Of a stretch of 64,000 nucleotides of DNA, positions 706 through 61,095 are shown one piece after another. The stretch is from Tragulus kanchil (taxonomy: Eukaryota; Chordata; Mammalia; Artiodactyla; Tragulidae): the NCBI GenBank assembly GCA_022376925.1, contig JAIOJX010000005.1:92477001-92541000 (forward strand), given 5' to 3'. The notes below the pieces were generated by a model that ran no database searches, had not been told where the DNA came from, and saw nothing but the letters and a program-made list of their open reading frames with translations. A program made the position numbers and the translations under genes. Position 1 is the first letter of the stretch; each line of letters opens with the position of its first letter.

Positions 706-741
706 CACATCTTTTATAACAGAGAAAGAACAAGTCTTGGT

Positions 742-1041
742 CGGGACTTCTCCAGTGGTCCAGTGGCTAAGAATCTGCATGCCAATGCAGAGGACCAGAG
801 TTCCACTCCTGTCTGAATAGATTCCACATGCTGCAGATCAGCTGAGTCTGGGTGCCACAACTACAGAGCCCAAGTTCTAGAGCCTGTGCTCTGCAACAGA
901 AGAAGCCACCACAATGAGAAGCCCATGTACCACAATTAGAGTGTAGCCCCAACTCACCACAACTAGAGAAAATCCATGAGTAGCAATGAAGGCCCAACGT
1001 GGCCAAAAATAAAAATGGATAAATAAATAAATAAATAAATC
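742..1041 (+). mobile_element. CHR-like tRNA-derived SINE
   Basis: The tRNA-like head contains TGGTCCAGTGG (A-box-like). The body follows the CHR pattern (CACAACTACAGAGCCC, then GAAGCCACCACAATGAGAAG) and ends in an (AAAT)n tail near 1017-1040. The B-box region is decayed. Small open frames inside are not genes. Confidence 0.85.
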
Positions 1042-1116
1042 TAAAGACTTTGTAAAAGGAATTTGTAAAAGACTTGTAAAAGACTCTTCTTTGTAAAAGA
1101 AGACTTTGTAAAGGAA
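1042..1116. repeat. Short imperfect tandem repeat of a TTTGTAAAAGA-like word
   Basis: Several variants of GACTTTGTAAAAG follow one another directly after the SINE tail. A second copy lies at about 2187-2261 because of duplication D1. Confidence 0.6.
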
Positions 1117-1885
1117 TTAAAATAACCCTGGACCTTTCAGAAAATACCCAAAGGACAGCTGTATGTTACTTCTCCACTAATTCCTCTGGCCCTATTCAAA
1201 TGTTCATTTATGTCAACCATAACTAACATAAGGAAATAATAAAAGAGATTGCTGGAGTCTCCAATGGAAACCATGCAGTTTAGAGCTCGACTTTCCTGGT
1301 TCTCTGATGCTAGCCTAGTACTGTCTTTGAATTGTTTAAGATAACTCCTTAAATTGTATATAACTGAGAAGCAAAGCAAAATAAGTGTTGTCTACAGACA
1401 TGAAGATAAATTCTGTCTCCTAGTGATTCAGTTAACTTCTTTTCCCCTTCCCATTAGAGAAAAACAGCTTCAGATACATTTGCAAACTCACGTGACACTC
1501 CTTTATTCCATATAAATTTGTGGCTCTCCTTTGAGGAGTTATAACATCTGTCTGGCTCTCTCACTAATAATGAGATAAATAAAATCTTTAACACGTGTTC
1601 AATTTATATCTGTAGGAGAGTCAGGATATTCCATTTGGGGGGAAATGATCCTTTAAGTCTAAAACAAATAATTCCCAAGGCCATGAATAAAGACAATTTA
1701 AATCCTATTACGATAGATTCTGAAAAGTATTTTTTGGCTAATAGACATTTCTCTGCATTTAATTTTAGTTTAAATAAATGACTTAGGAAGTGTATTCTAT
1801 GGTGTTTGGTGGTGATGTATTTACGGTGGTGAGATTTCACCTGGGATGTACACATCTTTTATAACAGAGAAAGAACAAGTCTTGG
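1117..1885. other. Unannotated sequence, repeated by D1
   Basis: No gene or recognised transposon is seen. The minus-strand open frames of about 80 codons at 1137-1379 and 1604-1855 reappear unchanged at +1145 and show no coding features. Confidence 0.4.
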
Positions 1886-1886
1886 T

Positions 1887-2186
1887 CGGGACTTCTCCAG
1901 TGGTCCAGTGGCTAAGAATCTGCATGCCAATGCAGAGGACCAGAGTTCCACTCCTGTCTGAATAGATTCCACATGCTGCAGATCAGCTGAGTCTGGGTGC
2001 CACAACTACAGAGCCCAAGTTCTAGAGCCTGTGCTCTGCAACAGAAGAAGCCACCACAATGAGAAGCCCATGTACCACAATTAGAGTGTAGCCCCAACTC
2101 ACCACAACTAGAGAAAATCCATGAGTAGCAATGAAGGCCCAACGTGGCCAAAAATAAAAATGGATAAATAAATAAATAAATAAATC
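1887..2186 (+). mobile_element. Second copy of the CHR-like SINE at 742-1041
   Basis: Identical to 742-1041 at offset 1145. It is not an independent insertion; it is part of duplication D1. Confidence 0.85.
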
Positions 2187-3676
2187 TAAAGACTTTGTAA
2201 AAGGAATTTGTAAAAGACTTGTAAAAGACTCTTCTTTGTAAAAGAAGACTTTGTAAAGGAATTAAAATAACCCTGGACCTTTCAGAAAATACCCAAAGGA
2301 CAGCTGTATGTTACTTCTCCACTAATTCCTCTGGCCCTATTCAAATGTTCATTTATGTCAACCATAACTAACATAAGGAAATAATAAAAGAGATTGCTGG
2401 AGTCTCCAATGGAAACCATGCAGTTTAGAGCTCGACTTTCCTGGTTCTCTGATGCTAGCCTAGTACTGTCTTTGAATTGTTTAAGATAACTCCTTAAATT
2501 GTATATAACTGAGAAGCAAAGCAAAATAAGTGTTGTCTACAGACATGAAGATAAATTCTGTCTCCTAGTGATTCAGTTAACTTCTTTTCCCCTTCCCATT
2601 AGAGAAAAACAGCTTCAGATACATTTGCAAACTCACGTGACACTCCTTTATTCCATATAAATTTGTGGCTCTCCTTTGAGGAGTTATAACATCTGTCTGG
2701 CTCTCTCACTAATAATGAGATAAATAAAATCTTTAACACGTGTTCAATTTATATCTGTAGGAGAGTCAGGATATTCCATTTGGGGGGAAATGATCCTTTA
2801 AGTCTAAAACAAATAATTCCCAAGGCCATGAATAAAGACAATTTAAATCCTATTACGATAGATTCTGAAAAGTATTTTTTGGCTAATAGACATTTCTCTG
2901 CATTTAATTTTAGTTTAAATAAATGACTTAGGAAGTGTATTCTATGGTGTTTGGTGGTGATGTATTTACGGTGGTGAGATTTCACCTGGGATGTACACAT
3001 GTAAGCTTCTCTGTGGAAGCTAACATAATGTATGAGTTCTACAGTTTAACAAGAAGCAAAACTGTTAGGTACAGACACACCAAGGAGCAAGCAAAGAGTG
3101 GAAACTGTCCCTTAAGGACTCACCAATCTGCTGTGTGAATGTAATCTATAATACTTTAACACCCTTGATGGAATAAGGGTTCCTTGAGAAAATCAACTCC
3201 TTTCTCAGGTCTGACAACAACCAGGCTTCTTTCAGCAGCATCAGCTCTTCTCACAATATATGAATTCATGGTGGACTTCCTATCAAAACCAAAAACAGAG
3301 CTAAGAATGTGTTTGCTTAAAACATGTTGATGAAAAACAGCTAGCATTAGGTCATGTTTCAAATGGCCATGGTTCCCTCAAAAATAATCTTTCTCACTCC
3401 TCTGTCCTTCTTCTTAGTAGTTTTATTTTACTAGTAGTATTTTAATTTTATTTTTAGGTTTCACAAAAAGAAGGTCAACACTGAGTTTCTTTCACACTAT
3501 AGAAAAAGAGGCAATAGAAAGTATTGTCTTAACAATTAAAGAACAATTTAGTAGTTTTCCATTCTTTCCCTACTGTGACTTGTAACTTATGGTATGACAC
3601 CATACCAGTAAATATGGTAAATATTCAAAGCACTTGTATCAATTAAACCCTTTCCCTGTGTCAAAAACAGAGTCAG

Positions 3677-4013
3677 GGGCTTCCCCTGGTGGTCCAGTGG
3701 ATAAGGATACCGCCTTGCAGTGCAAGGGGCGCCGGTTCGATCCCTGGCCTGGGAAGATCCCACGTGCCACGGAGCGGCTGGACTGATGTGTCCAATTACC
3801 AAGCTGGAGCTCTGGAGCACATGCGCCCAGAGCCGGCGCTCTGCAACGACAGACGCCACTGCAATGGGAGGCCCACAGGAGCCAAAGAACAAAGACGGAT
3901 GAAAATGGAGAAATGAAAGACCAATAGAAGTGGCCCGCCCGCTCCCCTCCCTCCCCAACCCGAACCCCGCCCAAAATAAATAAATAAATAAATCTAAAAA
4001 AAAAAAAAAAAAA
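3677..4013 (+). mobile_element. Long-form CHR-derived SINE (about 335 bp), full length
   Basis: The head starts GGGGCTTCCCCTGGTGGTCC and has a B box GGTTCGATCCC. The body has GGAGCGGCTGGAC, CATGCGCCCAGAGCC and AAAGAACAAAGACGGATGAA, then a pyrimidine-rich GC block (CTCCCCTCCCTCCCCAACCC), an (AAAT)n tail and poly-A. The flanks AAAAACAGAG before and after look like a target-site duplication. Open frames of 60-123 codons on both strands are coincidental. Confidence 0.9.
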
Positions 4014-4021
4014 CAGAGCTA

Positions 4022-4256
4022 GGGTTTCCCTAGTGGTCCAGTGGGTAAAGAGTCCACCTTGTAGTGCAAGGGGACCAGTTCGATCCCTGACCCGGTAACA
4101 TCCACTTGCCGTGGAGCAGCTAGACCCATATGTCCAACTGACGAGCCAGCGCTCTGGAGCGCATGCGCCCAGAGCCTGTGCTCAGCTGCGAGGGAGGCTG
4201 CTATGATGGGAGGCCCACACATGTCAAAGAATAAAGATGGATGAAAATTATAAATA
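4022..4256 (+). mobile_element. Older, diverged copy of the same CHR-type SINE
   Basis: It shares the head (TTTCCCTAGTGGTCCAGTGG, TTCGATCCCTGACCC) and body (TGGAGCGCATGCGCCCAGAG) with the long form. It has many substitutions and lacks the GC-rich 3' block. It begins about 9 bp after the tail of the younger SINE. Confidence 0.8.
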
Positions 4257-4782
4257 ACTAAAAACTTAGAAATTAAATAACAATAATAATAAAACAGAGT
4301 TTAACATACATGTTCCAAATTAGGCTGATGTTTTTCCTCTAGAAAAGTCTGCAAAGATTTTAGATTTTTCATACATATTTTTGTTCACTCAAAACCAAAA
4401 ACAGAGCTAAGAATGTGTTTGCTTAAAACATGTTGATGAAAAACAGCTAGCATTAGGTCATGTTTCAAATGGCCATGGTTCCCTCAAAAATAATCTTTCT
4501 CACTCCTCTGTCCTTCTTCTTAGTAGTTTTATTTTACTAGTAGTATTTTAATTTTATTTTTAGGTTTCACAAAAAGAAGGTCAACACTGAGTTTCTTTCA
4601 CACTATAGAAAAAGAGGCAATAGAAAGTATTGTCTTAACAATTAAAGAACAATTTAGTAGTTTTCCATTCTTTCCCTACTGTGACTTGTAACTTATGGTA
4701 TGACACCATACCAGTAAATATGGTAAATATTCAAAGCACTTGTATCAATTAAACCCTTTCCCTGTGTCAAAAACAGAGTCAG

Positions 4783-5119
4783 GGGCTTCCCCTGGTGGTC
4801 CAGTGGATAAGGATACCGCCTTGCAGTGCAAGGGGCGCCGGTTCGATCCCTGGCCTGGGAAGATCCCACGTGCCACGGAGCGGCTGGACTGATGTGTCCA
4901 ATTACCAAGCTGGAGCTCTGGAGCACATGCGCCCAGAGCCGGCGCTCTGCAACGACAGACGCCACTGCAATGGGAGGCCCACAGGAGCCAAAGAACAAAG
5001 ACGGATGAAAATAGAGAAATGAAAGACCAATAGAAGTGGCCCGCCCGCTCCCCTCCCTCCCCAACCCAACCCCCGCCCAAAATAAATAAATAAATAAATC
5101 TAAAAAAAAAAAAAAAAAA
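4783..5119 (+). mobile_element. Second copy of the long-form SINE at 3677-4013
   Basis: Matches at offset 1106 with a few base differences (for example near 5011 and 5069). It belongs to duplication D2 and is not an independent insertion. Confidence 0.88.
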
Positions 5120-5127
5120 CAGAGCTA

Positions 5128-5362
5128 GGGTTTCCCTAGTGGTCCAGTGGGTAAAGAGTCCACCTTGTAGTGCAAGGGGACCAGTTCGATCCCTGACCCG
5201 GTAACATCCACTTGCCGTGGAGCAGCTAGACCCATATGTCCAACTGACGAGCCAGCGCTCTGGAGCGCATGCGCCCAGAGCCTGTGCTCAGCTGCGAGGG
5301 AGGCTGCTATGATGGGAGGCCCACACATGTCAAAGAATAAAGATGGATGAAAATTATAAATA
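5128..5362 (+). mobile_element. Second copy of the older SINE at 4022-4256
   Basis: Matches at offset 1106 as part of duplication D2. Confidence 0.78.
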
Positions 5363-6111
5363 ACTAAGAAAAAGCTTGTGGCATGAAATTAAATAACAAT
5401 AATAATAAAACAGAGTTTAACATACATGTTTCCCAGATATTTAGGCTGATGTTTTTCCTCTAGAAAAGTCTGCAAAGATTTTAGATTTTTTCATACATAT
5501 TTTTGTTCATACTGAAATATATATACAGTTCTACTTTAATGCCTGAATCTATTGTCCTTGGAATCTAAGTTGGGCTTTCAGCAAACGACCAGATTTTTTT
5601 TTAATCCCATTGGGAAAAATGCTCAGTTTTTATTTTAATTTCAGTTTCTTTTCTCTGATCACACTTTACAGAACTTCATAGCTTCACTCCCAAGAGCAAC
5701 AGAAAATTTTAACAAGTAAGAAATAACAAAGCCAGCCCCATTTGTTTCATTATCTTGGGCCTACAGATGGTGAGAAGAAATGGCTGATGAAATATTTCTG
5801 ATGCTTGACAGCATTTGGTAAGGATCTAAAGGGTCGAAATGGAATTATTATCCAGTCCAATAGTCTGTTTGATAGAAGTAACCTTATCTTTGCCAGATGG
5901 GGGACAGGAAGGAATAATGAGCTTTCTGTCACAGTCCCAAAAGGAGAGAGGCAGAACAGATGAATGATGTACCAGGAACCGCTTTGGTACCTGAGCGTCA
6001 TACTCATGAATGAGTTTCATTGCCCTACTAGGATCTGCCACAGTCTTTTTTTTCCCATTTTTTAAGTCTTTACTGACTTTGTTATAATATTGCTTCTGTT
6101 GTATGTCTTGT

Positions 6112-6231
6112 TTTTTTTTTTTTTTTTCTGGCCTTGAGGCATATGAGATGTCATTCCCTAACCAGGGATCAAACCGTTATCCCCTGCATTGGAAGGCAAA
6201 GTCTTAACCATTTGGCCACCAGGGAAGTCCT
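6112..6231 (-). mobile_element. CHR-like SINE head, minus strand, with poly-T
   Basis: On the plus strand a T-run is followed by CTGGCCTTGAGGCATATGAG, AACCAGGGATCAAACC and ends TTGGCCACCAGGGAAGTCC, the reverse complement of a CHR/Bov tRNA-like head. It is old and truncated. Confidence 0.75.
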
Positions 6232-7174
6232 GACTATTTCTATTTTTTATTCAGTAGAATTCACAGCATTTGGTAGGGAAGGAGGGCATGAGAAACCATG
6301 CATTAACCTTCAGGTACCTATTGTGAGGACTCCCATGTAATCTAATATCTATGAGTATATGTGGCCCATGCTCAACACACAATCAGAGAGTATCAACTTT
6401 TGAGCAAGTAACATTCTTTAAATGGTTTTCTGTACTGGCCGTATGAAATATGCAATATATTCCCAGCCAAAAATATATGTATTTTTACATGTTTCCCAGA
6501 TATTTAGGCTGATGTTTTTCCTCTAGAAAAGTCTGCAAAGATTTTAGATTTTTTCATACATATTTTTGTTCATACTGAAATATATATACAGTTCTACTTT
6601 AATGCCTGAATCTATTGTCCTTGGAATCTAAGTTGGGCTTTCAGCAAACGACCAGATTTTTTTTTAATCCCATTGGGAAAAATGCTCAGTTTTTATTTTA
6701 ATTTCAGTTTCTTTTCTCTGATCACACTTTACAGAACTTCATAGCTTCACTCCCAAGAGCAACAGAAAATTTTAACAAGTAAGAAATAACAAAGCCAGCC
6801 CCATTTGTTTCATTATCTTGGGCCTACAGATGGTGAGAAGAAATGGCTGATGAAATATTTCTGATGCTTGACAGCATTTGGTAAGGATCTAAAGGGTCGA
6901 AATGGAATTATTATCCAGTCCAATAGTCTGTTTGATAGAAGTAACCTTATCTTTGCCAGATGGGGGACAGGAAGGAATAATGAGCTTTCTGTCACAGTCC
7001 CAAAAGGAGAGAGGCAGAACAGATGAATGATGTACCAGGAACCGCTTTGGTACCTGAGCGTCATACTCATGAATGAGTTTCATTGCCCTACTAGGATCTG
7101 CCACAGTCTTTTTTTTCCCATTTTTTAAGTCTTTACTGACTTTGTTATAATATTGCTTCTGTTGTATGTCTTGT

Positions 7175-7294
7175 TTTTTTTTTTTTTTTCTGGCCTTGAG
7201 GCATATGAGATGTCATTCCCTAACCAGGGATCAAACCGTTATCCCCTGCATTGGAAGGCAAAGTCTTAACCATTTGGCCACCAGGGAAGTCCTG
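7175..7294 (-). mobile_element. Second copy of the minus-strand CHR-like SINE
   Basis: Same sequence as 6112-6231 at offset 1063, within D3. Confidence 0.75.
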
Positions 7295-8105
7295 ACTATT
7301 TCTATTTTTTATTCAGTAGAATTCACAGCATTTGGTAGGGAAGGAGGGCATGAGAAACCATGCATTAACCTTCAGGTACCTATTGTGAGGACTCCCATGT
7401 AATCTAATATCTATGAGTATATGTGGCCCATGCTCAACACACAATCAGAGAGTATCAACTTTTGAGCAAGTAACATTCTTTAAATGGTTTTCTGTACTGG
7501 CCGTATGAAATATGCAATATATTCTCCCAGCCAAAAATATATGTATTTTTACATGATGGCTCTGGTCCCAGATTTGGCTCCCAAAGGTCTAATAATTCAC
7601 AGGGTAACTTTAAAGAAGTAGATATTTAATTTTTTAAGACAGGAAAGAGAAAACATATTGGAAATGCATGTCAGGGTATTTTGTCTTCTACAGAATGGTT
7701 TTGGAAACTGAGCACCATTTCCAAGGTTCTCTCGTGGGGTTGTTTCTGAGACAGGGAGTGCAGTTTCTCAGTGTTACCAGCTTCCAAGAACTTCAAACCT
7801 TTTGCTGTCACAGCAAAAGGAAAAGCCTTTGATGTGAGGGCCAGAGGCTCACAGCTGATGTGAGTGGTAGGTTTCAAGCTCAAGGACAGACTGCATCAAT
7901 ACTTATGGCACTGCTGCTTCTAACTGATTTTACTCACAAGCAACCTCAATCAAGGAATAATCTTTGGTGGAGGTCTTATGCTGGTCCTTGTCCTGCCACC
8001 TCCTTATTCCTCGGGAGATCTGGGAATGAACGATCTAGGTGGGGGTCCAGCCTCTCTGATAAGAGTGAGAAGTGACTTGGGTATGTGGCATTAAGAAACC
8101 CTTCT

Positions 8106-8358
8106 GAGAGCTTCCTTGGTGGTCCAGTGGGTAAGGACACTGCCTTGCAGTGCAAGGGGCACTGGTTCGATCCCTGGCCTGGGAAGATCCCATGTGCTGC
8201 GGAGCAGCTGGACCGGTGTGTCCAACTATTGTGCTGAAGCTCTGAAGCGCATGCGCCCAGAACTGGTGCTCTGCAACAAAAGAGGCCACTGCGATGGGAG
8301 AACCACGCGGGCCAAAGAACAAAGATGGAAATGAAAGACCAACAGAAGTGGCCAAAAA
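8106..8358 (+). mobile_element. CHR-derived SINE with 13-bp target-site duplication
   Basis: AAGAAACCCTTCT at 8093-8105 and again at 8359-8371 brackets the element, a clean target-site duplication. Head GGTGGTCCAGTGGG, B box GGTTCGATCCC, body GCATGCGCCCAGAACTGGTG. It lacks the GC-rich 3' block and ends in a short A-run. Confidence 0.92.
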
Positions 8359-9182
8359 AAGAAACCCTTCTTTGTACAGGAGGCCCCTTAATACAACTGA
8401 AACCTACATCAGAAATCCTAAATATCTATCCTCTGAAACATTCATTTATTAATCATAAGCTATACTCTGGTAGTAAACTCTCTGATACTTACTTCTGTAT
8501 CTTTCAAGCATGAACACACAATCAGAGAGTATCAACTTTTGAGCAAGTAACATTCTTTAAATGGTTTTCTGTACTGGCCGTATGAAATATGCAATATATT
8601 CTCCCAGCCAAAAATATATGTATTTTTACATGATGGCTCTGGTCCCAGATTTGGCTCCCAAAGGTCTAATAATTCACAGGGTAACTTTAAAGAAGTAGAT
8701 ATTTAATTTTTTAAGACAGGAAAGAGAAAACATATTGGAAATGCATGTCAGGGTATTTTGTCTTCTACAGAATGGTTTTGGAAACTGAGCACCATTTCCA
8801 AGGTTCTCTCGTGGGGTTGTTTCTGAGACAGGGAGTGCAGTTTCTCAGTGTTACCAGCTTCCAAGAACTTCAAACCTTTTGCTGTCACAGCAAAAGGAAA
8901 AGCCTTTGATGTGAGGGCCAGAGGCTCACAGCTGATGTGAGTGGTAGGTTTCAAGCTCAAGGACAGACTGCATCAATACTTATGGCACTGCTGCTTCTAA
9001 CTGATTTTACTCACAAGCAACCTCAATCAAGGAATAATCTTTGGTGGAGGTCTTATGCTGGTCCTTGTCCTGCCACCTCCTTATTCCTCGGGAGATCTGG
9101 GAATGAACGATCTAGGTGGGGGTCCAGCCTCTCTGATAAGAGTGAGAAGTGACTTGGGTATGTGGCATTAAGAAACCCTTCT

Positions 9183-9431
9183 GAGAGCTTCCTTGGTGGT
9201 CCAGTGGGTAAGGACACTGCCTTGCAGTGCAAGGGGCACTGGTTCGATCCCTGGCCTGGGAAGATCCCATGTGCTGGAGCAGCTGGACCGTGTGTCCAAC
9301 TATTGTGCTGAAGCTCTGAAGCGCATGCGCCCAGAACTGGTGCTCTGCAACAAAAGAGGCCACTGCGATGGGAGAACCACGCGGCCAAAGAACAAAGATG
9401 GAAATGAAAGACCAACAGAAGTGGCCAAAAA
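9183..9431 (+). mobile_element. Second copy of the SINE at 8106-8358
   Basis: Flanked by the same 13-bp repeats (9170-9182 and 9432-9444). It has four small deletions relative to the first copy and belongs to D4 and D5. Confidence 0.9.
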
Positions 9432-11451
9432 AAGAAACCCTTCTTTGTACAGGAGGCCCCTTAATACAACTGAAACCTACATCAGAAATCCTAAATATCT
9501 ATCCTCTGAAACATTCATTTATTAATCATAAGCTATACTCTGGTAGTAAACTCTCTGATACTTACTTCTGTATCTTTCAAGCATGAAGCAATGCCCACAC
9601 AGACATTTAATATCTGTTGTACGTCTTCACCTCCCACATCTCAGCATTTTCTAAGACAAACACAGAAATGCAATAGATGGGCAATGAACTGGTAAAGCTA
9701 AGTCTTCATCCTATAGACAATGTGCTATAATTTTAAAGAATTTCCTGAAGTCTGTATTTCACAGGTGAAAAATGTCCACACACTCATGAGCAAATGTATA
9801 TCAACAGAATACATATGCATGCAGTGTTAAATATCCAATAGAGAGGCTGATTTTATGCCAGGTCCAGAGAACTGACATTATTTTCTATGCACCCCTTGGA
9901 TCTTCTGATGTGAGCTATCTAATTATACACATGAATTATGTTCAGCATTGTATATTTGAATTACATATGGCTATTTTGATGCATAATACAAGTTTTCTTA
10001 TCACAGCAATTAAGAAAGTAAAGCACCAAGAAAATAAATTGCAACTTTTCATGTCAGCATCTAAGAAAATTCTTTGCAAACACCGTAAAAGCGTTCCTCA
10101 CTATCAAAGTCTAATAAATTCATGCTATCTGAATATATTAGGTCCCTGGGTTTTTGTCAGGTAAGGCTGCATAGCATGGTTTACATAGGACAAAGGCTAG
10201 AAAGTTATTACTCTCCTTTGTGAGACGAAGCCATTTTCAAAGGCATCTCAATGCTGGCAGTGTTAGATCAGTTATATTTGCACAAATATAATTTTGTTGA
10301 TTAACTTCTTGCATTTAAAAATTTCCTGTCAAAAAAATATGGCAAAGACACTGCCTTGCAGTGCAAGGGCACTGGTTCGATCCCTGGCCTGGGAAGATCC
10401 CATGTGCTGCGAGCAGCTGGACCGTGTGTCCAACTATTGTGCTGAAGCTCTGAAGCGCATGCGCCCAGAACTGGTGCTCTGCAACAAAAGAGGCCACTGC
10501 GATGGGAGAACCACGCGGGCCAAAGAACAAAGATGGAAATGAAAGACCAACAGAAGTGGCCAAAAAAAGAAACCCTTCTTTGTACAGGAGGCCCCTTAAT
10601 ACAACTGAAACCTACATCAGAAATCCTAAATATCTATCCTCTGAAACATTCATTTATTAATCATAAGCTATACTCTGGTAGTAAACTCTCTGATACTTAC
10701 TTCTGTATCTTTCAAGCATGAAGCAATGCCCACACAGACATTTAATATCTGTTGTACGTCTTCACCTCCCACATCTCAGCATTTTCTAAGACAAACACAG
10801 AAATGCAATAGATGGGCAATGAACTGGTAAAGCTAAGTCTTCATCCTATAGACAATGTGCTATAATTTTAAAGAATTTCCTGAAGTCTGTATTTCACAGG
10901 TGAAAAATGTCCACACACTCATGAGCAAATGTATATCAACAGAATACATATGCATGCAGTGTTAAATATCCAATAGAGAGGCTGATTTTATGCCAGGTCC
11001 AGAGAACTGACATTATTTTCTATGCACCCCTTGGATCTTCTGATGTGAGCTATCTAATTATACACATGAATTATGTTCAGCATTGTATATTTGAATTACA
11101 TATGGCTATTTTGATGCATAATACAAGTTTTCTTATCACAGCAATTAAGAAAGTAAAGCACCAAGAAAATAAATTGCAACTTTTCATGTCAGCATCTAAG
11201 AAAATTCTTTGCAAACACCGTAAAAGCGTTCCTCACTATCAAAGTCTAATAAATTCATGCTATCTGAATATATTAGGTCCCTGGGTTTTTGTCAGGTAAG
11301 GCTGCATAGCATGGTTTACATAGGACAAAGGCTAGAAAGTTATTACTCTCCTTTGTGAGACGAAGCCATTTTCAAAGGCATCTCAATGCTGGCAGTGTTA
11401 GATCAGTTATATTTGCACAAATATAATTTTGTTGATTAACTTCTTGCATTT
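9213..11451. repeat. Duplication D5: two near-adjacent copies, offset about 1135 bp
   Basis: Copy 1 is 9213-10316 and copy 2 is 10347-11451. About 30 bp (10317-10346) between them match neither copy. The first 370 bp of copy 1 overlap the second copy of D4, so the SINE here is present three times. Confidence 0.93.
10347..10566 (+). mobile_element. Third, head-truncated copy of the SINE at 8106-8358
   Basis: It starts abruptly inside the head (GACACTGCCTTGCAG) at the tile break and keeps the right-hand 13-bp repeat at 10567-10579. The truncation is at the duplication boundary, not a retrotransposition 5' end. Confidence 0.88.
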
Positions 11452-12631: not shown

Positions 12632-12773
12632 GTAGTGTAACTGAAAAACACCCATTCAAACCTAAGGTATTTCTTCCTTTGTCCATTTAGGATTGCGACT
12701 TTCCACAAACTCAGTGTAATTCTTTCTCAAGAACTCAGATGGAAAATCCCCAACACACAGAAACTGAAGCAGA

Positions 12774-15602: not shown

Positions 15603-15850
15603 CTCATGCACTACCCTGACTCTGTTCAGATTCTGAACCCTTATTCATCTTTCCAAGTCCATGTCAGATATCATTCTCTCTAGACAGCCTTTCCTAATGT
15701 CTGCATCTAAATTTGTTTTCACCTCCCATTCCAAATACTATGTGTACGCAATCCATATGTGAGAATTACAAATTGAAGACTTCTTATTGGAACTCAGCTG
15801 GTGAACTGGGTTTCAATGACCAACAACATGTTTTGTTTATATTTACTTTT

Positions 15851-47104: not shown

Positions 47105-47222
47105 GGGACTTCCTTGGTGGTCCAATTGTTAAGGCACCATGCTTCCAGTGCAGGAGGCCTGGGTTCAATCCCTGGCTGGGGAACTAAGATCTCATACACC
47201 ACAATGCACAGGCCCCAAAAAG
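47105..47222 (+). mobile_element. CHR-like SINE head
   Basis: GGGACTTCCTTGGTGGTCCA, GGTTCAATCCCTGGCTGGGG and ACTAAGATCTCATACACC. Short and truncated at the 3' end. Confidence 0.8.
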
Positions 47223-47736
47223 TGTATTCTGTATTTTTTCCCTATCTCATCCGGATTAAACAGACATAAGTATGGAAGGGCTCAACGAAAAACATCCCAG
47301 AAGGATCTATGCTCTGTGAAACCTGGATGGCTCCAAAGGTTTGAACAGTGTGTGGCATGTCCCTATTGAAGGTGCCGCCCCTTGCAAGGCAGCTAATGCA
47401 GAGAGAGTGTTTCCAGTAACACTGGGAGCAGGAAGAAGAAAATACCCCTGACAATGGCATCCAAAAGGAGACCACATGTTCCAGGTAGACACTGTTGCAG
47501 GTAGAGATTGGAAGGCAATCATGAAGAGGACACTGTCTATCATATCACAGATAATGCATATTTAGAAAAAAATGGTTTTATTTTTTTAGAGCATAAAAGA
47601 AATTTTAAAAGCAATTTACTTCTGCTTAAGAGTGAAGGTACTACATCTTCACACAGTCTTTCACCATCTACGTCCATTGGAAACGCCACTAGGATTTACT
47701 TCCTGGAGTACTAGAATTTGTACGGCAACTGGGAGT

Positions 47737-48060
47737 GCCTGAATTTTGCAATAAGGAACTCATGATCTGAGCCACAGTCAGTCCCGGGGTCTTATTTTTG
47801 CTGACTGTATACAGCTTCTCCATCTTTGGTTGCAAAGAGCATAATCAATCTGATCTTGGTATTGACCATCTGATGATGTCCATGTGTAGAGTCTTAACTT
47901 GGGTTGATGGAAAAGGGTATTTGCTATCATCAGCATGTTCTCTTAACAAAACTCTGTTAGTCCTTGCCCTTTTTCATTTTGCACTCCAAGGCCAAACTTG
48001 CCTTTTATTCTGGGTATCTCTTGACTTCTTACTTTTGCATTCCAATCCCCTAGGTTTGAA
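47737..48060 (-). mobile_element. Third copy of the BovB endonuclease end
   Basis: Matches 46626-46952 at offset 1111 (D18). Confidence 0.85.
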
Positions 48061-48214
48061 TACCTGCACCTATTAGCTAGAGTTTCCCAAAGTGCCACAA
48101 GTGTCCGTTTCTCAGTCATAAATGGGGGCTGGAGGTAGTCCTTGCCTGGAAGGCTGGCTATGATCTATAACAATGACTGAGACATAGCAGACACTTTTTA
48201 AAAAGCTGTATTAG

Positions 48215-48331
48215 GGGGACTTCCTTGGTGGTCCAATTGTTAAGGCACCATGCTTCCAGTGCAGGAGGCCTGGGTTCAATCCCTGGCTGGGGAACTAAGA
48301 TCTCATACACCACAATGCACAGGCCCCAAAA
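48215..48331 (+). mobile_element. Second copy of the CHR-like SINE head at 47105
   Basis: Same sequence at offset 1111-1110; one A is lost in CCCCAAAAAGTG. Confidence 0.8.
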
Positions 48332-48456
48332 GTGTATTCTGTATTTTTTCCCTATCTCATCCGGATTAAACAGACATAAGTATGGAAGGGCTCAACGAAA
48401 AACATCCCAGAAGGATCTATGCTCTGTGAAACCTGGATGGCTCCAAAGGTTTGAAC

Positions 48457-52285: not shown

Positions 52286-54625
52286 CCACCACCATACTTT
52301 CAATACCAAAAGAGATCTATTTATTAATAGAACTTTGCTCTGAATCCTTTTGCAATTGTAAAGTATAAAAACCATTTTTTTTAACTATCTGGTTAGAGAT
52401 ATTGGACACTTCTGCATTAAGCTTTCTCAGGGAGAAATAAATACGTAAAATATAGCCAGAACCAGCATTCTAATCATGTACATATTATCTTGTTATTGTT
52501 CCATGGAAATTTCCATTTTCTCTCAGTAATATTCAGTTGGACTTTGTATCGAAAAGAGCAACAATAAATTCTACCACCTTTTAAAGGCAAACATTAACAT
52601 CAGGGAGATAAAGTTATAAAGTTCCGCAAGGTTAACGTTTCTGCTTACTTTTTAATCAATTGCTTACATTTCTCAGTCAACTTCTTCACAATTTCTCAGT
52701 CTTCCACCCACACATACTCTTTCCCTCCTGGACTCTGAACCCTGCCAAGTTCCAGGAGAAAAGTGTTTTGTTTTACATAACGACAGTCTGCAAATCTGAC
52801 TGTCCCTGGGGTAAACTTGTTCTTTTGAACACTGATTAAAAGATACTTACCATCAATTGAGCTATCCAACCTAAGACACAACTGCAGAACTTTAAGTTGT
52901 AATAAGTATTTTTAAAATGAAGACCAAAAGAAGCAGGAGACCAATTCTAGTAGTTCTAGAAGAAAAGGCAATCATTTCACTTCTTTTATGTAAGAAAGAC
53001 ATACAGGACAGATGGGGGCTGAACAGCCATCTCCAATCTACACTTCTAATATGTTATAAAAACATTACCTTCTAAAATCAGAAACATTTAACTATTGAAG
53101 TGCTCAAAAATATACATGTGTTATCCAAATGGAAAAGGTCAGGTCCCGTGTTCTACACCAGAAGTTCTAAGCACTGTCAAGAAGATGCTTTACCAGTTGA
53201 ATGAACTGTAGGTACAACTTTCCAGTCAGGGAACTCACAAACTGCATAACCATATGAAGTTCTCTGAGACTCTGTTTCTCCATTTGAGATGACAGGTTTA
53301 GTTTAGATCACTGAATTCATTAGAATAAGATAATTCAGACAACATATTTACTTTAATCCAATGACTAACTTAGTAAGTGCCCAATGAATGATAGTTGTTA
53401 TTACTGAAACAGGTTAAAATATTAAATTTATATGGTGGATAGTAATACAGTCTTATCTGACTGAAAACTGACATGCTTATTATCTGATCTCAAAAAACCT
53501 TTTTTTTAACTATCTGGTTAGAGTTTTCACTTCTGCATTAAGCTTTCTCAGGGAGAAATAAATACGTAAAATATAGCCAGAACCAGCATTCTAATCATGT
53601 ACATATTATCTTGTTATTGTTCCATGGAAATTTCCATTTTCTCTCAGTAATATTCAGTTGGACTTTGTATCGAAAAGAGCAACAATAAATTCTACCACCT
53701 TTTAAAGGCAAACATTAACATCAGGGAGATAAAGTTATAAAGTTCCGCAAGGTTAACGTTTCTGCTTACTTTTTAATCAATTGCTTACATTTCTCAGTCA
53801 ACTTCTTCACAATTTCTCAGTCTTCCACCCACACACATACTCTTTCCCTCCTGGACTCTGAACCCTGCCAAGTTCCAGGAGAAAAGTGTTTTGTTTTACA
53901 TAACGACAGTCTGCAAATCTGACTGTCCCTGGGGTAAACTTGTTCTTTTGAACACTGATTAAAAGATACTTACCATCAATTGAGCTATCCAACCTAAGAC
54001 ACAACTGCAGAACTTTAAGTTGTAATAAGTATTTTTAAAATGAAGACCAAAAGAAGCAGGAGACCAATTCTAGTAGTTCTAGAAGAAAAGGCAATCATTT
54101 CACTTCTTTTATGTAAGAAAGACATACAGGACAGATGGGGGCTGAACAGCCATCTCCAATCTACACTTCTAATATGTTATAAAAACATTACCTTCTAAAA
54201 TCAGAAACATTTAACTATTGAAGTGCTCAAAAATATACATGTGTTATCCAAATGGAAAAGGTCAGGTCCCGTGTTCTACACCAGAAGTTCTAAGCACTGT
54301 CAAGAAGATGCTTTACCAGTTGAATGAACTGTAGGTACAACTTTCCAGTCAGGGAACTCACAAACTGCATAACCATATGAAGTTCTCTGAGACTCTGTTT
54401 CTCCATTTGAGATGACAGGTTTAGTTTAGATCACTGAATTCATTAGAATAAGATAATTCAGACAACATATTTACTTTAATCCAATGACTAACTTAGTAAG
54501 TGCCCAATGAATGATAGTTGTTATTACTGAAACAGGTTAAAATATTAAATTTATATGGTGGATAGTAATACAGTCTTATCTGACTGAAAACTGACATGCT
54601 TATTATCTGATCTCAGTTTTATTTT
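52286..54625. other. Unannotated sequence, mostly in D20
   Basis: AT-rich, no gene confirmed. A donor-like GATG|GTAAGTAT occurs on the minus strand near 52846-52851 (and in copy 2), but upstream reading frames are interrupted by stops, so no exon is called. Confidence 0.4.
52375..54615. repeat. Duplication D20: offset 1121-1125 bp
   Basis: Copy 1 is 52375-53499 and copy 2 is 53500-54615. The start of copy 2 lacks four bases (AGATATTGGACACTTC against AGTTTTCACTTC). A CA unit is added in CCCACACACATAC. Confidence 0.94.
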
Positions 54626-55069: not shown

Positions 55070-55374
55070 GGTGTCCCTAGTGGCTCAGTGGTAAAGAATC
55101 CACCTGCCAATGCAGGAGACATAGGTTCCATCCCTGGTCCAGGAAGATCCTTCATGCCAGGGAGCAACTAAGTCCGTGTGCCACAACTATTGACCCTGTG
55201 CTCTAGAGCCCAGAAACCACAATTACTGAGCCTGCGAGCCCTAGGGCCTATGCTCCGCAACGAGAGAAGCCACCAAAAGGAGAGGCCTGAGCACCGCAAC
55301 TGCTTGCTGCAAGTAGAGAAAAGCTCATGCAGCAATGAAGACCCAAAACAGCTGAAAATCAGTAAAATTATTTT
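55070..55374 (+). mobile_element. SINE with Bov-tA-like head and CHR-like body
   Basis: TAAAATTATAT at 55059-55069 and 55375-55385 is an 11-bp target-site duplication. The head (CCCTAGTGGCTCAGTGGTAA, CCACCTGCCAATGCAGGAGA) reads like Bov-tA. The body (GGGAGCAACTAAGTCCGTGT, AGAGAAGCCACCAAAAGGAG) reads like CHR. Confidence 0.88.
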
Positions 55375-55525
55375 TAAAATTATATTACACAAGGAACAGA
55401 TTCTCATCCCTTGTGGATCTGAGAAAGAGGTAGACATTTTTATATAAATTTTATAAGTGAAAATGATACTAACGATCTACATTAAAACTGATTTTGGCAT
55501 CACCAATTATAAAGGGCCTGTTTTT

Positions 55526-55802
55526 GTTTTTGTTTTTAATCTTGGCCTCTTTTTATTGGTCTTTCATTTATTTTTTTTCATCCATCTTTGTTCTTTGTCC
55601 TGTGTGGACCTCCCATGGCAGTGGCCTCTCTCCTCGCAGAGCACCGGGTCTGGGTGCATGCACTCCAGAGCTCTGGCTCAGTAGTTGGACACATCCCTCC
55701 AACCGCCCCACGACACGTGGGGTCTTCCCAGGCCAGGGATTGAACCGGCACCCCTTGCACTGCAAGGCGGTGTCCCTACCCACTGGACCACCAGGGAAGT
55801 CC
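55526..55802 (-). mobile_element. CHR-derived SINE, minus strand, older long-form relative
   Basis: Landmarks TTATTGGTCTTTCATTTATT, GGGTGCATGCACTCCAGAGC and CCACTGGACCACCAGGGAAG. It lacks the GC-rich block. Flanks AAGGGCCTGT and AAGGGCATGT may be a target-site duplication. Confidence 0.87.
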
Positions 55803-56082
55803 AAGGGCATGTTTAATACACTAAGTGTACAACCATTCCCAAAAAATTGTTGAGACACATCAATCAAAACAATAATAAGGCAAGCCTTCAAGAACTTACT
55901 TCAGCATGAAAAACCATTTTTCTAAACTAACTTTCCCCTAAAAACATGTTTCCAGGAAACCAGGAGCTTATAGGATATCTTCTTAGATGGTGCCAAACTT
56001 ACAGTATCAAGACTAGTAATCCAAGCTGTCTCTCAAGCCTGAGGTGGCCAGGAAGGCCCCAGGAATTAGAGGAGGGCCCACA

Positions 56083-56230
56083 GGGACTTTTCTGTTGGTC
56101 CAGTGGCTAAGACTCCACTGTCTCAATGCAGGCAATCCAGGTTTGATCCCTGGTTGGGGAACTGGATCCCACATGCTGCTACAAAAGATCCTGTATGCCG
56201 TAACTAAGACCCAGTGCAGCCAAAAATAAG
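56083..56230 (+). mobile_element. CHR-like SINE
   Basis: GGGACTTTTCTGTTGGTCCA, CAGGTTTGATCCCTGGTTGG and CCGTAACTAAGACCCAGTGC. Its tail is lost at the D21 join here; complete copies are at 57167 and 58263. Confidence 0.85.
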
Positions 56231-56459
56231 ATCCTTCATGCCAGGGAGCAACTAAGTCCGTGTGCCACAACTATTGACCCTGTGCTCTAGAGCCCAGAAA
56301 CCACAATTACTGAGCCTGCGAGCCCTAGGGCCTATGCTCCGCAACGAGAGAAGCCACCAAAAGGAGAGGCCTGAGCACCGCAACTGCTTGCTGCAAGTAG
56401 AGAAAAGCTCATGCAGCAATGAAGACCCAAAACAGCTGAAAATCAGTAAAATTATTTTT
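56228..56459 (+). mobile_element. Second, headless copy of the SINE at 55070-55374
   Basis: Begins at the tile break inside the element and matches at offset 1084 (D21). Confidence 0.85.
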
Positions 56460-56609
56460 AAAATTATATTACACAAGGAACAGATTCTCATCCCTTGTGG
56501 ATCTGAGAAAGAGGTAGACATTTTTATATAAATTTTATAAGTGAAAATGATACTAACGATCTACATTAAAACTGATTTTGGCATCACCAATTATAAAGGG
56601 CCTGTTTTT

Positions 56610-56886
56610 GTTTTTGTTTTTAATCTTGGCCTCTTTTTATTGGTCTTTCATTTATTTTTTTTCATCCATCTTTGTTCTTTGTCCTGTGTGGACCTCCCAT
56701 GGCAGTGGCCTCTCTCCTCGCAGAGCACCGGGTCTGGGTGCATGCACTCCAGAGCTCTGGCTCAGTAGTTGGACACATCCCTCCAACCGCCCCACGACAC
56801 GTGGGGTCTTCCCAGGCCAGGGATTGAACCGGCACCCCTTGCACTGCAAGGCGGTGTCCCTACCCACTGGACCACCAGGGAAGTCC
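56610..56886 (-). mobile_element. Second copy of the SINE at 55526-55802
   Basis: Identical at offset 1084 (D21). Confidence 0.87.
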
Positions 56887-57166
56887 AAGGGCATGTTTAA
56901 TACACTAAGTGTACAACCATTCCCAAAAAATTGTTGAGACACATCAATCAAAACAATAATAAGGCAAGCCTTCAAGAACTTACTTCAGCATGAAAAACCA
57001 TTTTTCTAAACTAACTTTCCCCTAAAAACATGTTTCCAGGAAACCAGGAGCTTATAGGATATCTTCTTAGATGGTGCCAAACTTACAGTATCAAGACTAG
57101 TAATCCAAGCTGTCTCTCAAGCCTGAGGTGGCCAGGAAGGCCCCAGGAATTAGAGGAGGGCCCACA

Positions 57167-57320
57167 GGGACTTTTCTGTTGGTCCAGTGGCTAAGACTCC
57201 ACTGTCTCAATGCAGGCAATCCAGGTTTGATCCCTGGTTGGGGAACTGGATCCCACATGCTGCTACAAAAGATCCTGTATGCCGTAACTAAGACCCAGTG
57301 CAGCCAAATAAATAAATGCA
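57167..57320 (+). mobile_element. Second copy of the CHR-like SINE at 56083, with tail
   Basis: Matches at offset 1084 and keeps its AAATAAATAAATG tail. Confidence 0.85.
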
Positions 57321-58262
57321 TTTTTAAATGATGAGGGCCAACAGGTTTACAGTCTGAAAGATTCAAGAGTCATGTGGATTGGAGAAAGTAAAACAAGCAA
57401 ACATACAAGCAAAAACACAAGCTGCTGAACTGTTTCTGCCTTCTGATACGGTGGGTTCACACTATGATGAAATTCATCTCAACCTTGCTCCTCTCCTCTC
57501 TTAAAAGACTGGCAGGTGAGGAAGAAGATGCTTTCACAAGCCAGAACCTAGAATGGATGACCCATACTTCGAGGAAACCCAAGTAGGGACCAGGGTCACG
57601 ATGAAGACAAAGAGATTATTTGATTTTTTAAAATGTGTGCTGAATTACATTTGGGCAGAGCCTGGAGTTGGGGGCTGCCAGGAAGCAGAGATTCTTCATG
57701 GAAAACAGGAGGCTAAACAAAATCTCTCATTGCCCCACACGTTTAAGTCTTCTGCAAATGCACATGTCTTGAATGGCTAATATTTGTAAGATGAAAATCC
57801 AAAAGGAAAGGCCGTGCTCCTTGCCATCAATGCATAATAAATGGCACAGGACAGGAAATTCTTTAATTAAGGTAAAAATGACTTTAAATAAGGTAGAAAT
57901 GACTAGAAGAAATTCTCAGAAAATACACCCCCATCAAATTGCTCTAGAGAACTCCCAGGGATGTGAGCAAAATGTGTTTGTATTTCAAAGGGAGTCATGG
58001 ACTTCAGTTTATACCTGTACCAGACAGGGATTCTTTTGAGACATAAAAACAATAATAAGGCAAGCCTTCAAGAACTTACTTCAGCATGAAAAACCATTTT
58101 TCTAAACTAACTTTCCCCTAAAAACATGTTTCCAGGAAACCAGGAGCTTATAGGATATCTTCTTAGATGGTGCCAAACTTACAGTATCAAGACTAGTAAT
58201 CCAAGCTGTCTCTCAAGCCTGAGGTGGCCAGGAAGGCCCCAGGAATTAGAGGAGGGCCCACA
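57321..58262. other. Unannotated sequence, in D22/D23
   Basis: No gene or named repeat is recognised. Confidence 0.4.
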
Positions 58263-58416
58263 GGGACTTTTCTGTTGGTCCAGTGGCTAAGACTCCACTG
58301 TCTCAATGCAGGCAATCCAGGTTTGATCCCTGGTTGGGGAACTGGATCCCACATGCTGCTACAAAAGATCCTGTATGCCGTAACTAAGACCCAGTGCAGC
58401 CAAATAAATAAATGCA
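58263..58416 (+). mobile_element. Third copy of the CHR-like SINE at 56083
   Basis: Matches 57167-57320 at offset 1096 (D22). Confidence 0.85.
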
Positions 58417-61095
58417 TTTTTAAATGATGAGGGCCAACAGGTTTACAGTCTGAAAGATTCAAGAGTCATGTGGATTGGAGAAAGTAAAACAAGCAAACAT
58501 ACAAGCAAAAACACAAGCTGCTGAACTGTTTCTGCCTTCTGATACGGTGGGTTCACACTATGATGAAATTCATCTCAACCTTGCTCCTCTCCTCTCTTAA
58601 AAGACTGGCAGGTGAGGAAGAAGATGCTTTCACAAGCCAGAACCTAGAATGGATGACCCATACTTCGAGGAAACCCAAGTAGGGACCAGGGTCACGATGA
58701 AGACAAAGAGATTATTTGATTTTTTAAAATGTGTGCTGAATTACATTTGGGCAGAGCCTGGAGTTGGGGGCTGCCAGGAAGCAGAGATTCTTCATGGAAA
58801 ACAGGAGGCTAAACAAAATCTCTCATTGCCCCACACGTTTAAGTCTTCTGCAAATGCACATGTCTTGAATGGCTAATATTTGTAAGATGAAAATCCAAAA
58901 GGAAAGGCCGTGCTCCTTGCCATCAATGCATAATAAATGGCACAGGACAGGAAATTCTTTAATTAAGGTAAAAATGACTTTAAATAAGGTAGAAATGACT
59001 AGAAGAAATTCTCAGAAAATACACCCCCATCAAATTGCTCTAGAGAACTCCCAGGGATGTGAGCAAAATGTGTTTGTATTTCAAAGGGAGTCATGGACTT
59101 CAGTTTATACCTGTACCAGACAGGGATTCAAGTTCAAGTAAGACTGATTAGGAAAGGCAGAGAGACAGACATTCAGGGCAGACAAGATCCTTAGACTCTT
59201 ATATGCCTTCATCTCCTTCACTTACTTCTTAGTAAGGGAGGCCAGACCCCATGATGAGGAACTGAAGGTACATGATTCAGACCTAAAGGTGTACTGTCTG
59301 CCTCATCAGGACAGAACAGCCAGGGCTTAGCACAGACATGCTCCAGAGACAGCCCGTCTCTAAGCCAAGGCTGCCACATCCTGGAAGTCACCAGCAGACC
59401 CCCTGCTGCTACAGCAGTTTAGGGGATGCTGAAGGGTAAAGAGGGCTAGGCATAAATGGCCACTCAAGCAGAGTCCACGGCCACAAACAAAAAGAATGGC
59501 TGGGAGGGTAGAGAACACTCCCTGTGATGCCAAAGAATCCTGTGAGAGCTCCGGTCTGGCACAGGTTTTTGATGCCCTGGAACTGAATGGTGACCTACAT
59601 GACCACTGGGGTGGTCCAGAGGGAGCAGCCAGAGAGATGGTCAGATCAATCCTAACTAGTACTTATTATTTGTGCATTTGCAAAATTACACCCATACATC
59701 CTCACACAAATGTTCTTTAGCCAATCATCCTGTTGAATTTCTGTAAAAATATAACATTTCTTCCCCTTGTAAGGAGACATGGAGATTACACAATGACTTC
59801 GAATTATATAACGAGGAAGTTATGAAGTTCCTAGATTATGTAACATCTAAGAACCATGGATGCATTTATTTTCTTTCCACCTATGATATAAGGACCCTCA
59901 CGATGAAGACAAAGAGATTATTTGATTTTTTAAAATGTGTGCTGAATTACATTTGGGCAGAGCCTTGAGTTGGGGGGTGCCAGGAAGCAGAGATTCTTCA
60001 TGGAAAACAGGAGGCTAAACAAAATCTCTCATTGCCCCACGTTTAAGTCTTCTGCAAATGCACATGTCTTGAATGGCTAATATTTGTAAGATGAAAATCC
60101 AAAAGGAAAGGCCGTGCTCCTTGCCATCAATGCATAATAAATGGCACAGGACAGGAAATTCTTTAATTAAGGTAAAAATGACTTTAAATAAGGTAGAAAT
60201 GACTAGAAGAAATTCTCAGAAAATACACCCCCATCAAATTGCTCTAGAGAACTCCCAGGGATGTGAGCAAAATGTGTTTGTATTTCAAAGGGAGTCATGG
60301 ACTTCAGTTTATACCTGTACCAGACAGGGATTCAAGTTCAAGTAAGACTGATTAGGAAAGGCAGAGAGACAGACATTCAGGGCAGACAAGATCCTTAGAC
60401 TCTTATATGCCTTCATCTCCTTCACTTACTTCTTAGTAAGGGAGGCCAGACCCCATGATGAGGAACTGAAGGTACATGATTCAGACCTAAAGGTGTACTG
60501 TCTGCCTCATCAGGACAGAACAGCCAGGGCTTAGCACAGACATGCTCCAGAGACAGCCCGTCTCTAAGCCAAGGCTGCCACATCCTGGAAGTCACCAGCA
60601 GACCCCCTGCTGCTACAGCAGTTTAGGGGATGCTGAAGGGTAAAGAGGGCTAGGCATAAATGGCCACTCAAGCAGAGTCCACGGCCACAAACAAAAAGAA
60701 TGGCTGGGAGGGTAGAGAACACTCCCTGTGATGCCAAAGAATCCTGTGAGAGCTCCGGTCTGGCACAGGTTTTTGATGCCCTGGAACTGAATGGTGACCT
60801 ACATGACCACTGGGGTGGTCCAGAGGGAGCAGCCAGAGAGATGGTCAGATCAATCCTAACTAGTACTTATTATTTGTGCATTTGCAAAATTACACCCATA
60901 CATCCTCACACAAATGTTCTTTAGCCAATCATCCTGTTGAATTTCTGTAAAAATATAACATTTCTTCCCCTTGTAAGGAGACATGGAGATTACACAATGA
61001 CTTCGAATTATATAACGAGGAAGTTATGAAGTTCCTAGATTATGTAACATCTAAGAACCATGGATGCATTTATTTTCTTTCCACCTATGATATAA
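58417..61095. other. Unannotated sequence, largely in D23
   Basis: No gene or recognised transposon. Open frames at 59496-59720 and 60700-60924 are the two copies of one stretch. Confidence 0.4.
58692..61095. repeat. Duplication D23: offset 1204-1206 bp
   Basis: Copy 1 is 58692-59897 and copy 2 is 59898-61095. Copy 2 differs in its first 150 bp (GCCTTGAG for GCCTGGAG, GGGGGGTGCC for GGGGGCTGCC, CCCACG for CCCACACG). It overlaps D22 copy 2 by about 430 bp. Confidence 0.95.

What the first reader, a model, noticed from the sequence alone, without database searches (positions are those of the whole stretch)
706..61095. Twenty-three adjacent ~1.1-kb duplications: probable tile-wise assembly artefact
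Direct reading finds 23 head-to-tail pairs, never more than two adjacent copies, with offsets only between about 1.06 and 1.21 kb, on unrelated sequence each time (SINE, L1, BovB, unique DNA). No known genomic process repeatedly makes adjacent two-copy duplications of one length at unrelated sites. Unmerged overlaps between fragments do. Collapsing them removes about 25.8 kb and leaves about 38.2 kb. Any copy-number, gene-length or TE-density statement from this window is inflated until this is corrected.
Basis: partly seen in the sequence, partly recalled or inferred. Interest (0 to 1): 0.9.

Follow-up and report, generated by a model that had tools for sequence, protein, structure and literature searches.

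The report
Genome-wide unmerged-overlap assembly artefact
The sequence repeats itself every few thousand letters because overlapping building blocks of the genome assembly were most likely laid end to end instead of being merged; the repeats are not biology, and the same error turned up in every long stretch sampled elsewhere in this assembly.

Summary
Confirmed, and it is an assembly artefact. The window holds 23 adjacent direct duplications, offsets 1,063-1,206 bp (mean 1,120, sd 35); the offsets sum to 25.8 of 64 kb. Two results settle the cause. (1) It is not local: 20 of 20 ten-kb stretches on 12 of the 32 contigs of the same 3.17-Gb assembly, and both window flanks, carry it; about 30% of the bases of those 20 are redundant (bootstrap 26-35%). 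(2) Copies differ by consensus error placed at unit ends: about two thirds indels, 6-fold denser in the outer 100 bp in the window and 12-fold in the sample. Where a third copy can vote, the odd one is a unit end or start in 72 of 81 events, a unit middle in 4, undecided in 5. A duplication in the animal has no reason to follow unit ends. Most likely, overlapping consensus units of a long-read layout were concatenated unmerged; wtdbg/wtdbg2 fits but rests on recall. The kind is known (false homotype duplication); the load is high.

The parts
706..3000 (+). pair 1: copies 706-1855 / 1851-3000, join at 1851
   Evidence: offset 1145, 100%; full-length matches only at these two places among the 42 matches that one search reported
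3283..5509 (+). pair 2: 3283-4387 / 4389-5509, join at 4389
   Evidence: offset 1106-1122, 98.3%
5423..7555 (+). pair 3: 5423-6491 / 6486-7555, join at 6486
   Evidence: 99.7%; 4307-4387 has a third copy at 6486-6572
7436..9587 (+). pair 4: 7436-8514 / 8513-9587, join at 8513
   Evidence: 99.6%
9207..11451 (+). pair 5: 9207-10316 / 10341-11451, join at 10341
   Evidence: 99.6%, 24 nt of filler
12767..14980 (+). pair 6: 12767-13853 / 13896-14980, join at 13896
   Evidence: 99.5%, 42 nt of filler
14937..17152 (+). pair 7: 14937-16039 / 16040-17152, join at 16040
   Evidence: 99.0%
18104..20466 (+). pair 8: 18104-19273 / 19297-20466, join at 19297
   Evidence: 100%, 23 nt of filler
20196..22425 (+). 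pair 9: 20196-21304 / 21318-22425, join at 21318
   Evidence: 99.7%
25827..27995 (+). pair 10: 25827-26893 / 26918-27995, join at 26918
   Evidence: 98.4%
28840..31113 (+). pair 11: 28840-29964 / 29990-31113, join at 29990, inside an L1 ORF2 relic
   Evidence: 99.9%; L1 order
31656..33786 (+). pair 12: 31656-32706 / 32736-33786, join at 32736
   Evidence: 99.6%
34144..36470 (+). pair 13: 34144-35316 / 35306-36470, join at 35306
   Evidence: 98.8%
38442..40700 (+). pair 14: 38442-39565 / 39577-40700, join at 39577
   Evidence: 100%
40780..43015 (+). pair 15: 40780-41897 / 41898-43015, join at 41898
   Evidence: 99.9%
42766..45056 (+). pair 16: 42766-43907 / 43915-45056, join at 43915
   Evidence: 99.9%
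44712..46922 (+). pair 17: 44712-45816 / 45815-46922, join at 45815
   Evidence: 99.5%
46626..48840 (+). pair 18: 46626-47730 / 47737-48840, join at 47737
   Evidence: 99.8%
48446..50618 (+). pair 19: 48446-49529 / 49534-50618, join at 49534
   Evidence: 99.1%
52367..54615 (+). pair 20: 52367-53492 / 53493-54615, join at 53493
   Evidence: 99.3%
55144..57308 (+). pair 21: 55144-56224 / 56228-57308, join at 56228
   Evidence: 100%
56947..59129 (+). pair 22: 56947-58033 / 58043-59129, join at 58043
   Evidence: 99.9%
58692..61095 (+). pair 23: 58692-59891 / 59898-61095, join at 59898
   Evidence: 99.7%; 57596-58033 has its third copy at 59898-60333
29270..31660 (+). L1 ORF2 pieces: aa 778-930 at 29270-29782, the same again at 30419-30931, then 1000-1067 (31080-31433) and 1088-1183 (31364-31660)
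   Evidence: residues of 8sxt_A (LINE-1 ORF2 protein)

Best explanation
The window is a chain of at least 24 consensus units, each overlapping the next by about 1.1 kb of true sequence, that were written one after the other without merging the overlap. Each join therefore repeats the end of one unit as the start of the next. Where a unit is shorter than two overlaps, units i and i+2 also overlap and the stretch appears three times. Shown: the chain, its lengths, the error pattern at unit ends, and its presence in all 20 ten-kb stretches sampled elsewhere and both flanks. Inferred: that the animal has one copy; that the units are pieces of a long-read layout whose stitching step failed. The single most likely program is wtdbg/wtdbg2, in which (recalled) neighbouring layout units share one node of about 1,024 bp; I give that about even odds.
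For: Nearly the same offset on unrelated sequence at 23 of 23 window joins, and 47 complete plus 13 partial pairs in 22 further loci, complete offsets 1,025-1,218, mean 1,110, sd 36; 20 of 20 ten-kb stretches at round-number positions positive. Of the 40 other matches scored for a query from pair 1, 20 form 10 same-strand pairs 1,082-1,148 bp apart on 9 contigs (my count). Differences: window 84, of which 57 indels (30 in homopolymers) and 27 substitutions; sampled loci 170, of which 108 indels (53 in homopolymers) and 62 substitutions, 26 transitions and 36 transversions. End concentration: 49 of 84 within 100 bp of a copy end against 18% expected, 25 of 47 when clustered; 123 of 170 in the sample. 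Three-copy votes: unit end 12, start 13, middle 3 (10 triples); end 24, start 23, middle 1, undecided 5 (14 triples). L1 ORF2 runs 778-930, again 778-930, then on to 1000 and beyond.
Against: No reads were available, so depth and spanning reads are untested. Filler at the joins mostly does not resemble the sequence that a longer unit end or start should carry: of 28 comparisons at 14 joins, 3 fell at or below 17 of 500 shuffles, about 1 expected. 4 of 70 joins share at least 5 bases that are exact in both copies, against 0.7% expected (p = 0.002); microhomology-driven duplication would leave this too, though a stitcher anchoring on a short false match also would. Two 3.3-kb stretches around single hits (L005, L006) show no pair, which at one join per 3.6 kb is not surprising. 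For the tool: unit steps show no 256-bp rhythm, only 2 of 72 offsets lie near 1,024 (1,025 twice, next 1,063), and aligned lengths go down to 1,011, so the wtdbg link is weak.
Confidence: 0.97

Rival explanations
1. Two haplotypes placed one after the other (heterotype false duplication): each copy is one allele of a heterozygous stretch.
For: Adjacent, highly similar copies are typical of it (median 98.1% in PMC2864568; sections read). A background of 1.7 differences per kb inside the window's copies could include true heterozygous sites.
Against: Some pairs have no difference at all (4 of 23; 7 of 47). Differences are mostly indels, show no transition excess in the sample (26 to 36) and crowd at the ends. 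Length is nearly fixed, which heterozygosity does not dictate. Three-copy stretches need more than two alleles.
Confidence: 0.015
2. Real recent tandem duplications in the animal, made by a repeated process with a nearly fixed length of 1.1 kb.
For: Copies are adjacent and in one orientation; 4 of 70 joins share 5 or more bases exact in both copies, more than chance.
Against: Present in all 20 sampled 10-kb stretches at 1-4 joins each; error-type differences at unit ends; in three-copy stretches the middle copy is the odd one in only 4 of 81 events. I know of no process that does this (general knowledge).
Confidence: 0.005
3. A variant within the best explanation: same artefact, but from a tool other than wtdbg, such as overlapping polishing or consensus blocks, gap filling, or a contig tiling path concatenated without merging.
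For: Any pipeline with about 1-kb overlaps could look the same; the VGP paper describes overlap duplications at contig boundaries and a FALCON bug behind one case (PMC8081667, passages). No 256-bp rhythm is seen.
Against: Unit lengths vary from 1.8 to 5.6 kb, unlike fixed-size blocks.
Confidence: 0.48

Closest known systems
False homotype duplication, type 'overlapping sequences at contig boundaries' (Vertebrate Genomes Project, PMC8081667; passages read)
   Same: One locus written twice, head to tail, from overlapping pieces; no haplotype difference needed; a bug in FALCON is given there as the cause of one case.
   Different: There the length is often that of a corrected read and scaffolding leaves a gap between copies; here the overlap is near 1.1 kb throughout, no N lies in the window, and it recurs every few kb.
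False duplications quantified by Ko et al. 2022 (PMC9516828; abstract and passages)
   Same: False duplication of a large share of an assembly: 4 to 16% of sequences in earlier platypus, zebra finch and hummingbird assemblies.
   Different: Mainly heterotype there; here homotype-like and about 30% of the sampled bases.
Duplicated overlapping contigs (DOC) of Kelley and Salzberg 2010 (PMC2864568; sections 4 and 6 read)
   Same: Ends of neighbouring contigs hold the same sequence and should be joined.
   Different: Ascribed to divergent haplotypes; in all 2.27 Mb in cow and 16.7 Mb in chimpanzee.
wtdbg/wtdbg2 layout units (edges) and wtpoa-cns stitching
   Same: [quoted passage not shown] That neighbouring units share one node of about 1,024 bp is recalled.
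   Different: Its own paper is not held. The listings showed no title on this failure; of the papers listed there only PMC7483855 and PMC12037172 were opened, in passages.

Membership tests
False homotype duplication | Two adjacent copies of one locus without haplotype-type differences | tested here: met
   Indel-rich differences at ends; 4 of 23 and 7 of 47 pairs without difference
False homotype duplication | Occurs at borders of assembly pieces | tested here: met
   Errors polarised to unit ends by third copies; the piece borders themselves are inferred from the joins
False homotype duplication | Read depth or k-mer copy number too low for two copies | not testable with these tools
   No reads of the animal are held
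False heterotype duplication | Differences are allelic variants spread through the copies | tested here: not met
   49 of 84 and 123 of 170 differences within 100 bp of copy ends; 26 transitions to 36 transversions in the sample
True tandem duplication | Site-specific presence, lengths not fixed, differences independent of position | tested here: not met
   20 of 20 stretches positive, offsets 1,025-1,218; position-dependent errors
wtdbg node-overlap stitching failure | Overlap of about 1,024 bp or slightly more | tested here: inconclusive
   72 offsets, lowest 1,025 (twice), next 1,063, median 1,111; aligned lengths from 1,011; the value 1,024 is recalled
wtdbg node-overlap stitching failure | Unit borders on a 256-bp bin grid | tested here: inconclusive
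   No periodicity near 256 in 60 steps; a consensus of many reads may blur it
wtdbg node-overlap stitching failure | Assembly was made with wtdbg | not testable with these tools

The most novel reading that the evidence does not exclude
Probability: 0.88. Interest if true: 0.45.

Novelty: not a real feature. Interest (0 to 1): 0.3.

Why it matters
The duplications carry no biology, but the assembly is a trap. If the sampled rate (55 joins in 200 kb, about 30% redundant, bootstrap 26-35%) holds throughout, roughly 0.8-1.1 Gb of the 3.17 Gb is surplus and about 2.1-2.3 Gb is unique. By inference, many exons then appear twice, reading frames and TE copies are broken at joins, segmental-duplication and gene-gain scans are flooded, and short reads map ambiguously. 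The signature used here (near-fixed offset plus errors polarised to unit ends by third copies) is a simple test for such assemblies that needs neither reads nor a reference.

Tried and rejected
Haplotype duplication: rejected on difference type and position. Real tandem duplication: rejected on recurrence and polarity. Chance or dispersed repeats: rejected; the one 94% hit among the 11 three-copy candidates (9931/11988) has no matching pair and was dropped before the vote as a dispersed repeat. In one search pairs needed at least 900 aligned bases and less than 90 nt between copies to be compared; the 13 shorter or cut ones were counted but not compared. Filler between copies as noisy continuation of a unit: tested at the 14 window joins with 3 nt or more, mostly not so. 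256-bp rhythm of unit steps: not seen. Gene-level test by counting homeobox exons (PF00046) in the own genome: not completed. Pfam scan of eight long frames found only one sub-threshold endonuclease match. Species: not identified; goat and giraffe papers were looked at in passages for assembler and statistics only and say nothing about this assembly.
Full report
WHAT IS THERE. Self-comparison of the 64-kb window finds 23 adjacent direct pairs between 706 and 61095. Offsets are 1,063-1,206 bp, mean 1,120, sd 35; aligned lengths 1,051-1,200; the offsets sum to 25,771. Identity is 98.3-100%. Joins lie at 1851, 4389, 6486, 8513, 10341, 13896, 16040, 19297, 21318, 26918, 29990, 32736, 35306, 39577, 41898, 43915, 45815, 47737, 49534, 53493, 56228, 58043 and 59898, which divide the window into 24 units; the 22 complete ones are 1,797-5,600 bp long. 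Longer units may contain joins that were merged properly; such joins would be invisible. No direct repeat above 95% and 200 bp at an offset over 2.5 kb and no such inverted repeat was found in the window. Ten stretches of 81-438 bp occur three times, at the end of unit i, inside unit i+1 and at the start of unit i+2, as expected when a unit is shorter than two overlaps.

IT IS NOT LOCAL. The window lies at C6:92477001-92541000 of an unnamed assembly of 3,167,203,957 bases in 32 contigs. A query from pair 1 found itself twice at full length and 40 further, partial matches of 72-79% identity, SINE-like by inference (42 matches reported; the tool scored 40 of 5,599 candidates). Of these 40, 20 form 10 same-strand pairs 1,082-1,148 bp apart on nine contigs (my count from its table). 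Of the six loci fetched around such hits, L003/L004 and L007/L008 show the pair and L005 and L006 (3.3 kb each) show none. I then took 20 stretches of 10 kb at round-number positions, chosen without looking, on 12 of the 32 contigs. All 20 hold adjacent pairs of the same kind, 41 complete by the rule, with offsets 1,025-1,218. With the two window flanks, 22 loci give 47 complete and 13 partial pairs, mean offset of the complete ones 1,110, sd 36. In the 20 stretches there are 55 joins in 200 kb, 1 to 4 per 10 kb, so about 30% of the bases are redundant (bootstrap 26-35%), and about 2.1-2.3 Gb of the 3.17 Gb would be unique if the rate holds throughout. The window itself is above that (25.8 of 64 kb, 40%).

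ERRORS SIT AT UNIT ENDS. In the window the 23 pairs differ at 84 places in 25.6 kb: 57 indels, 30 of them in homopolymers, and 27 substitutions. 49 of 84 lie within 100 bp of a copy end, where 18% are expected; counting clusters once it is 25 of 47 (p = 5.5e-8). That is 10.7 per kb at the ends and 1.7 per kb inside. In the sampled loci: 170 differences, 108 indels and 62 substitutions, 26 transitions and 36 transversions, 123 of 170 in the outer 100 bp (p = 2e-53, events not clustered), or 13.1 against 1.1 per kb. BLAST trims alignment ends, so this should be conservative. Events within a locus are not fully independent; the clustered count of the window is the safer one.

THIRD COPIES VOTE. 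In three-copy stretches one copy lies at a unit's end, one in a unit's middle and one at a unit's start. The odd one out is the end copy 12 times, the start copy 13 times and the middle copy 3 times in 10 window triples (28 events; p = 0.006 for 3 or fewer), and 24, 23 and 1, with 5 undecided, in 14 triples from the sample (53 events). Together the middle copy is odd in 4 of 81 events. Three of the four come from two window triples (8130-8514: middle 2, end 2, start 3; 43563-43907: middle 1 alone). Real duplicates, or haplotypes, have no reason to be faulty almost only where an assembly unit ends; a consensus with thin read support at its ends does.

AN OUTSIDE YARDSTICK. Pair 11 lies in an L1 relic. 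Its frames match a solved LINE-1 ORF2 protein (8sxt_A) at residues 778-930 (29270-29782), again 778-930 (30419-30931), then 1000-1067 (31080-31433) and 1088-1183 (31364-31660). By interpolation the first copy breaks off at about residue 1000 and the second continues from there in the normal order, so the single-copy order is the original one. By itself this would also fit a real duplication.

MECHANISM. Overlapping consensus units were concatenated without merging. An overlap of slightly over 1 kb, variable unit lengths and poor unit ends suit the layout of wtdbg/wtdbg2, where, as I recall, neighbouring units share one node of four 256-bp bins (1,024 bp) and the consensus program must align and merge them. 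The wtdbg2 paper is not held. [quoted passage not shown] Against it: unit steps show no 256-bp rhythm, and of 72 offsets only two (1,025) lie near 1,024, the next being 1,063; aligned lengths go down to 1,011. I give the tool about even odds and the general mechanism about 0.97.

LOOSE ENDS. Of 70 complete joins (23 window, 47 sample), 28 have more than 10 nt of filler, 14 have 1-10 nt, 5 abut, and 23 overlap by alignment; in 4 of 70 at least 5 shared bases are exact in both copies, against 0.7% expected (p = 0.002). The p-value printed uses 12 overlaps, 8 of them inexact, and is not comparable with that expectation. Filler mostly does not match what a longer unit should read. Both suggest that the stitching step cut or anchored units at short false matches; this is inferred.

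WHAT IS KNOWN. The VGP paper separates heterotype from homotype false duplications and describes the latter as overlapping sequences at contig boundaries or under-collapsed sequence, one case due to a FALCON bug (PMC8081667, passages). Ko et al. report 4 to 16% of sequences falsely duplicated in three earlier assemblies, mainly heterotype (PMC9516828, abstract and passages). Kelley and Salzberg found 2.27 Mb of erroneous duplication in cow and 16.7 Mb in chimpanzee, ascribed to haplotypes (PMC2864568, sections 4 and 6). So the kind is known; the near-fixed length and the load of about 30% are beyond what I saw in these papers. The listings, which cover open-licence papers only, showed no title on this failure; most papers listed there were not opened.

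VERDICT. Ordinary in kind, an artefact, but widespread in the assembly and severe.

Noticed in passing
window 29270-31660: Decayed L1 ORF2 matching a solved LINE-1 ORF2 protein between residues 778 and 1183; one false join falls inside it.
   Followed up: yes
window 8112-8186, 9189-9263, 47111-47183, 48222-48294: tRNA-Cys calls (first two) and Rfam tRNA matches just above the gathering score (30 and 29.1 bits against 29), perhaps tRNA-derived SINEs; each is called twice because of the false duplication.
   Followed up: no
window 45438-45725 (-): Frame with a weak endonuclease match (PF03372, below cut-off, E 0.0065), perhaps a piece of a BovB/RTE endonuclease.
   Followed up: no
L023:5769-5883 and L025:2793-2892: Runs of 115 and 100 N in the sampled stretches; the one in L023 ends directly before a duplicated copy that starts at 5884.
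   Followed up: no
window joins 1851, 6486; L017:6309; L030:6024: Four of 70 joins share 5-7 bases that are exact in both copies, more than chance, perhaps the anchor of a failed stitch.
   Followed up: partly
G000 as a whole: Six of the 12 contigs whose length was shown are 224-297 Mb; less about 30% they would be about 157-208 Mb. From memory that suggests a low chromosome number for a ruminant. Species not identified.
   Followed up: no
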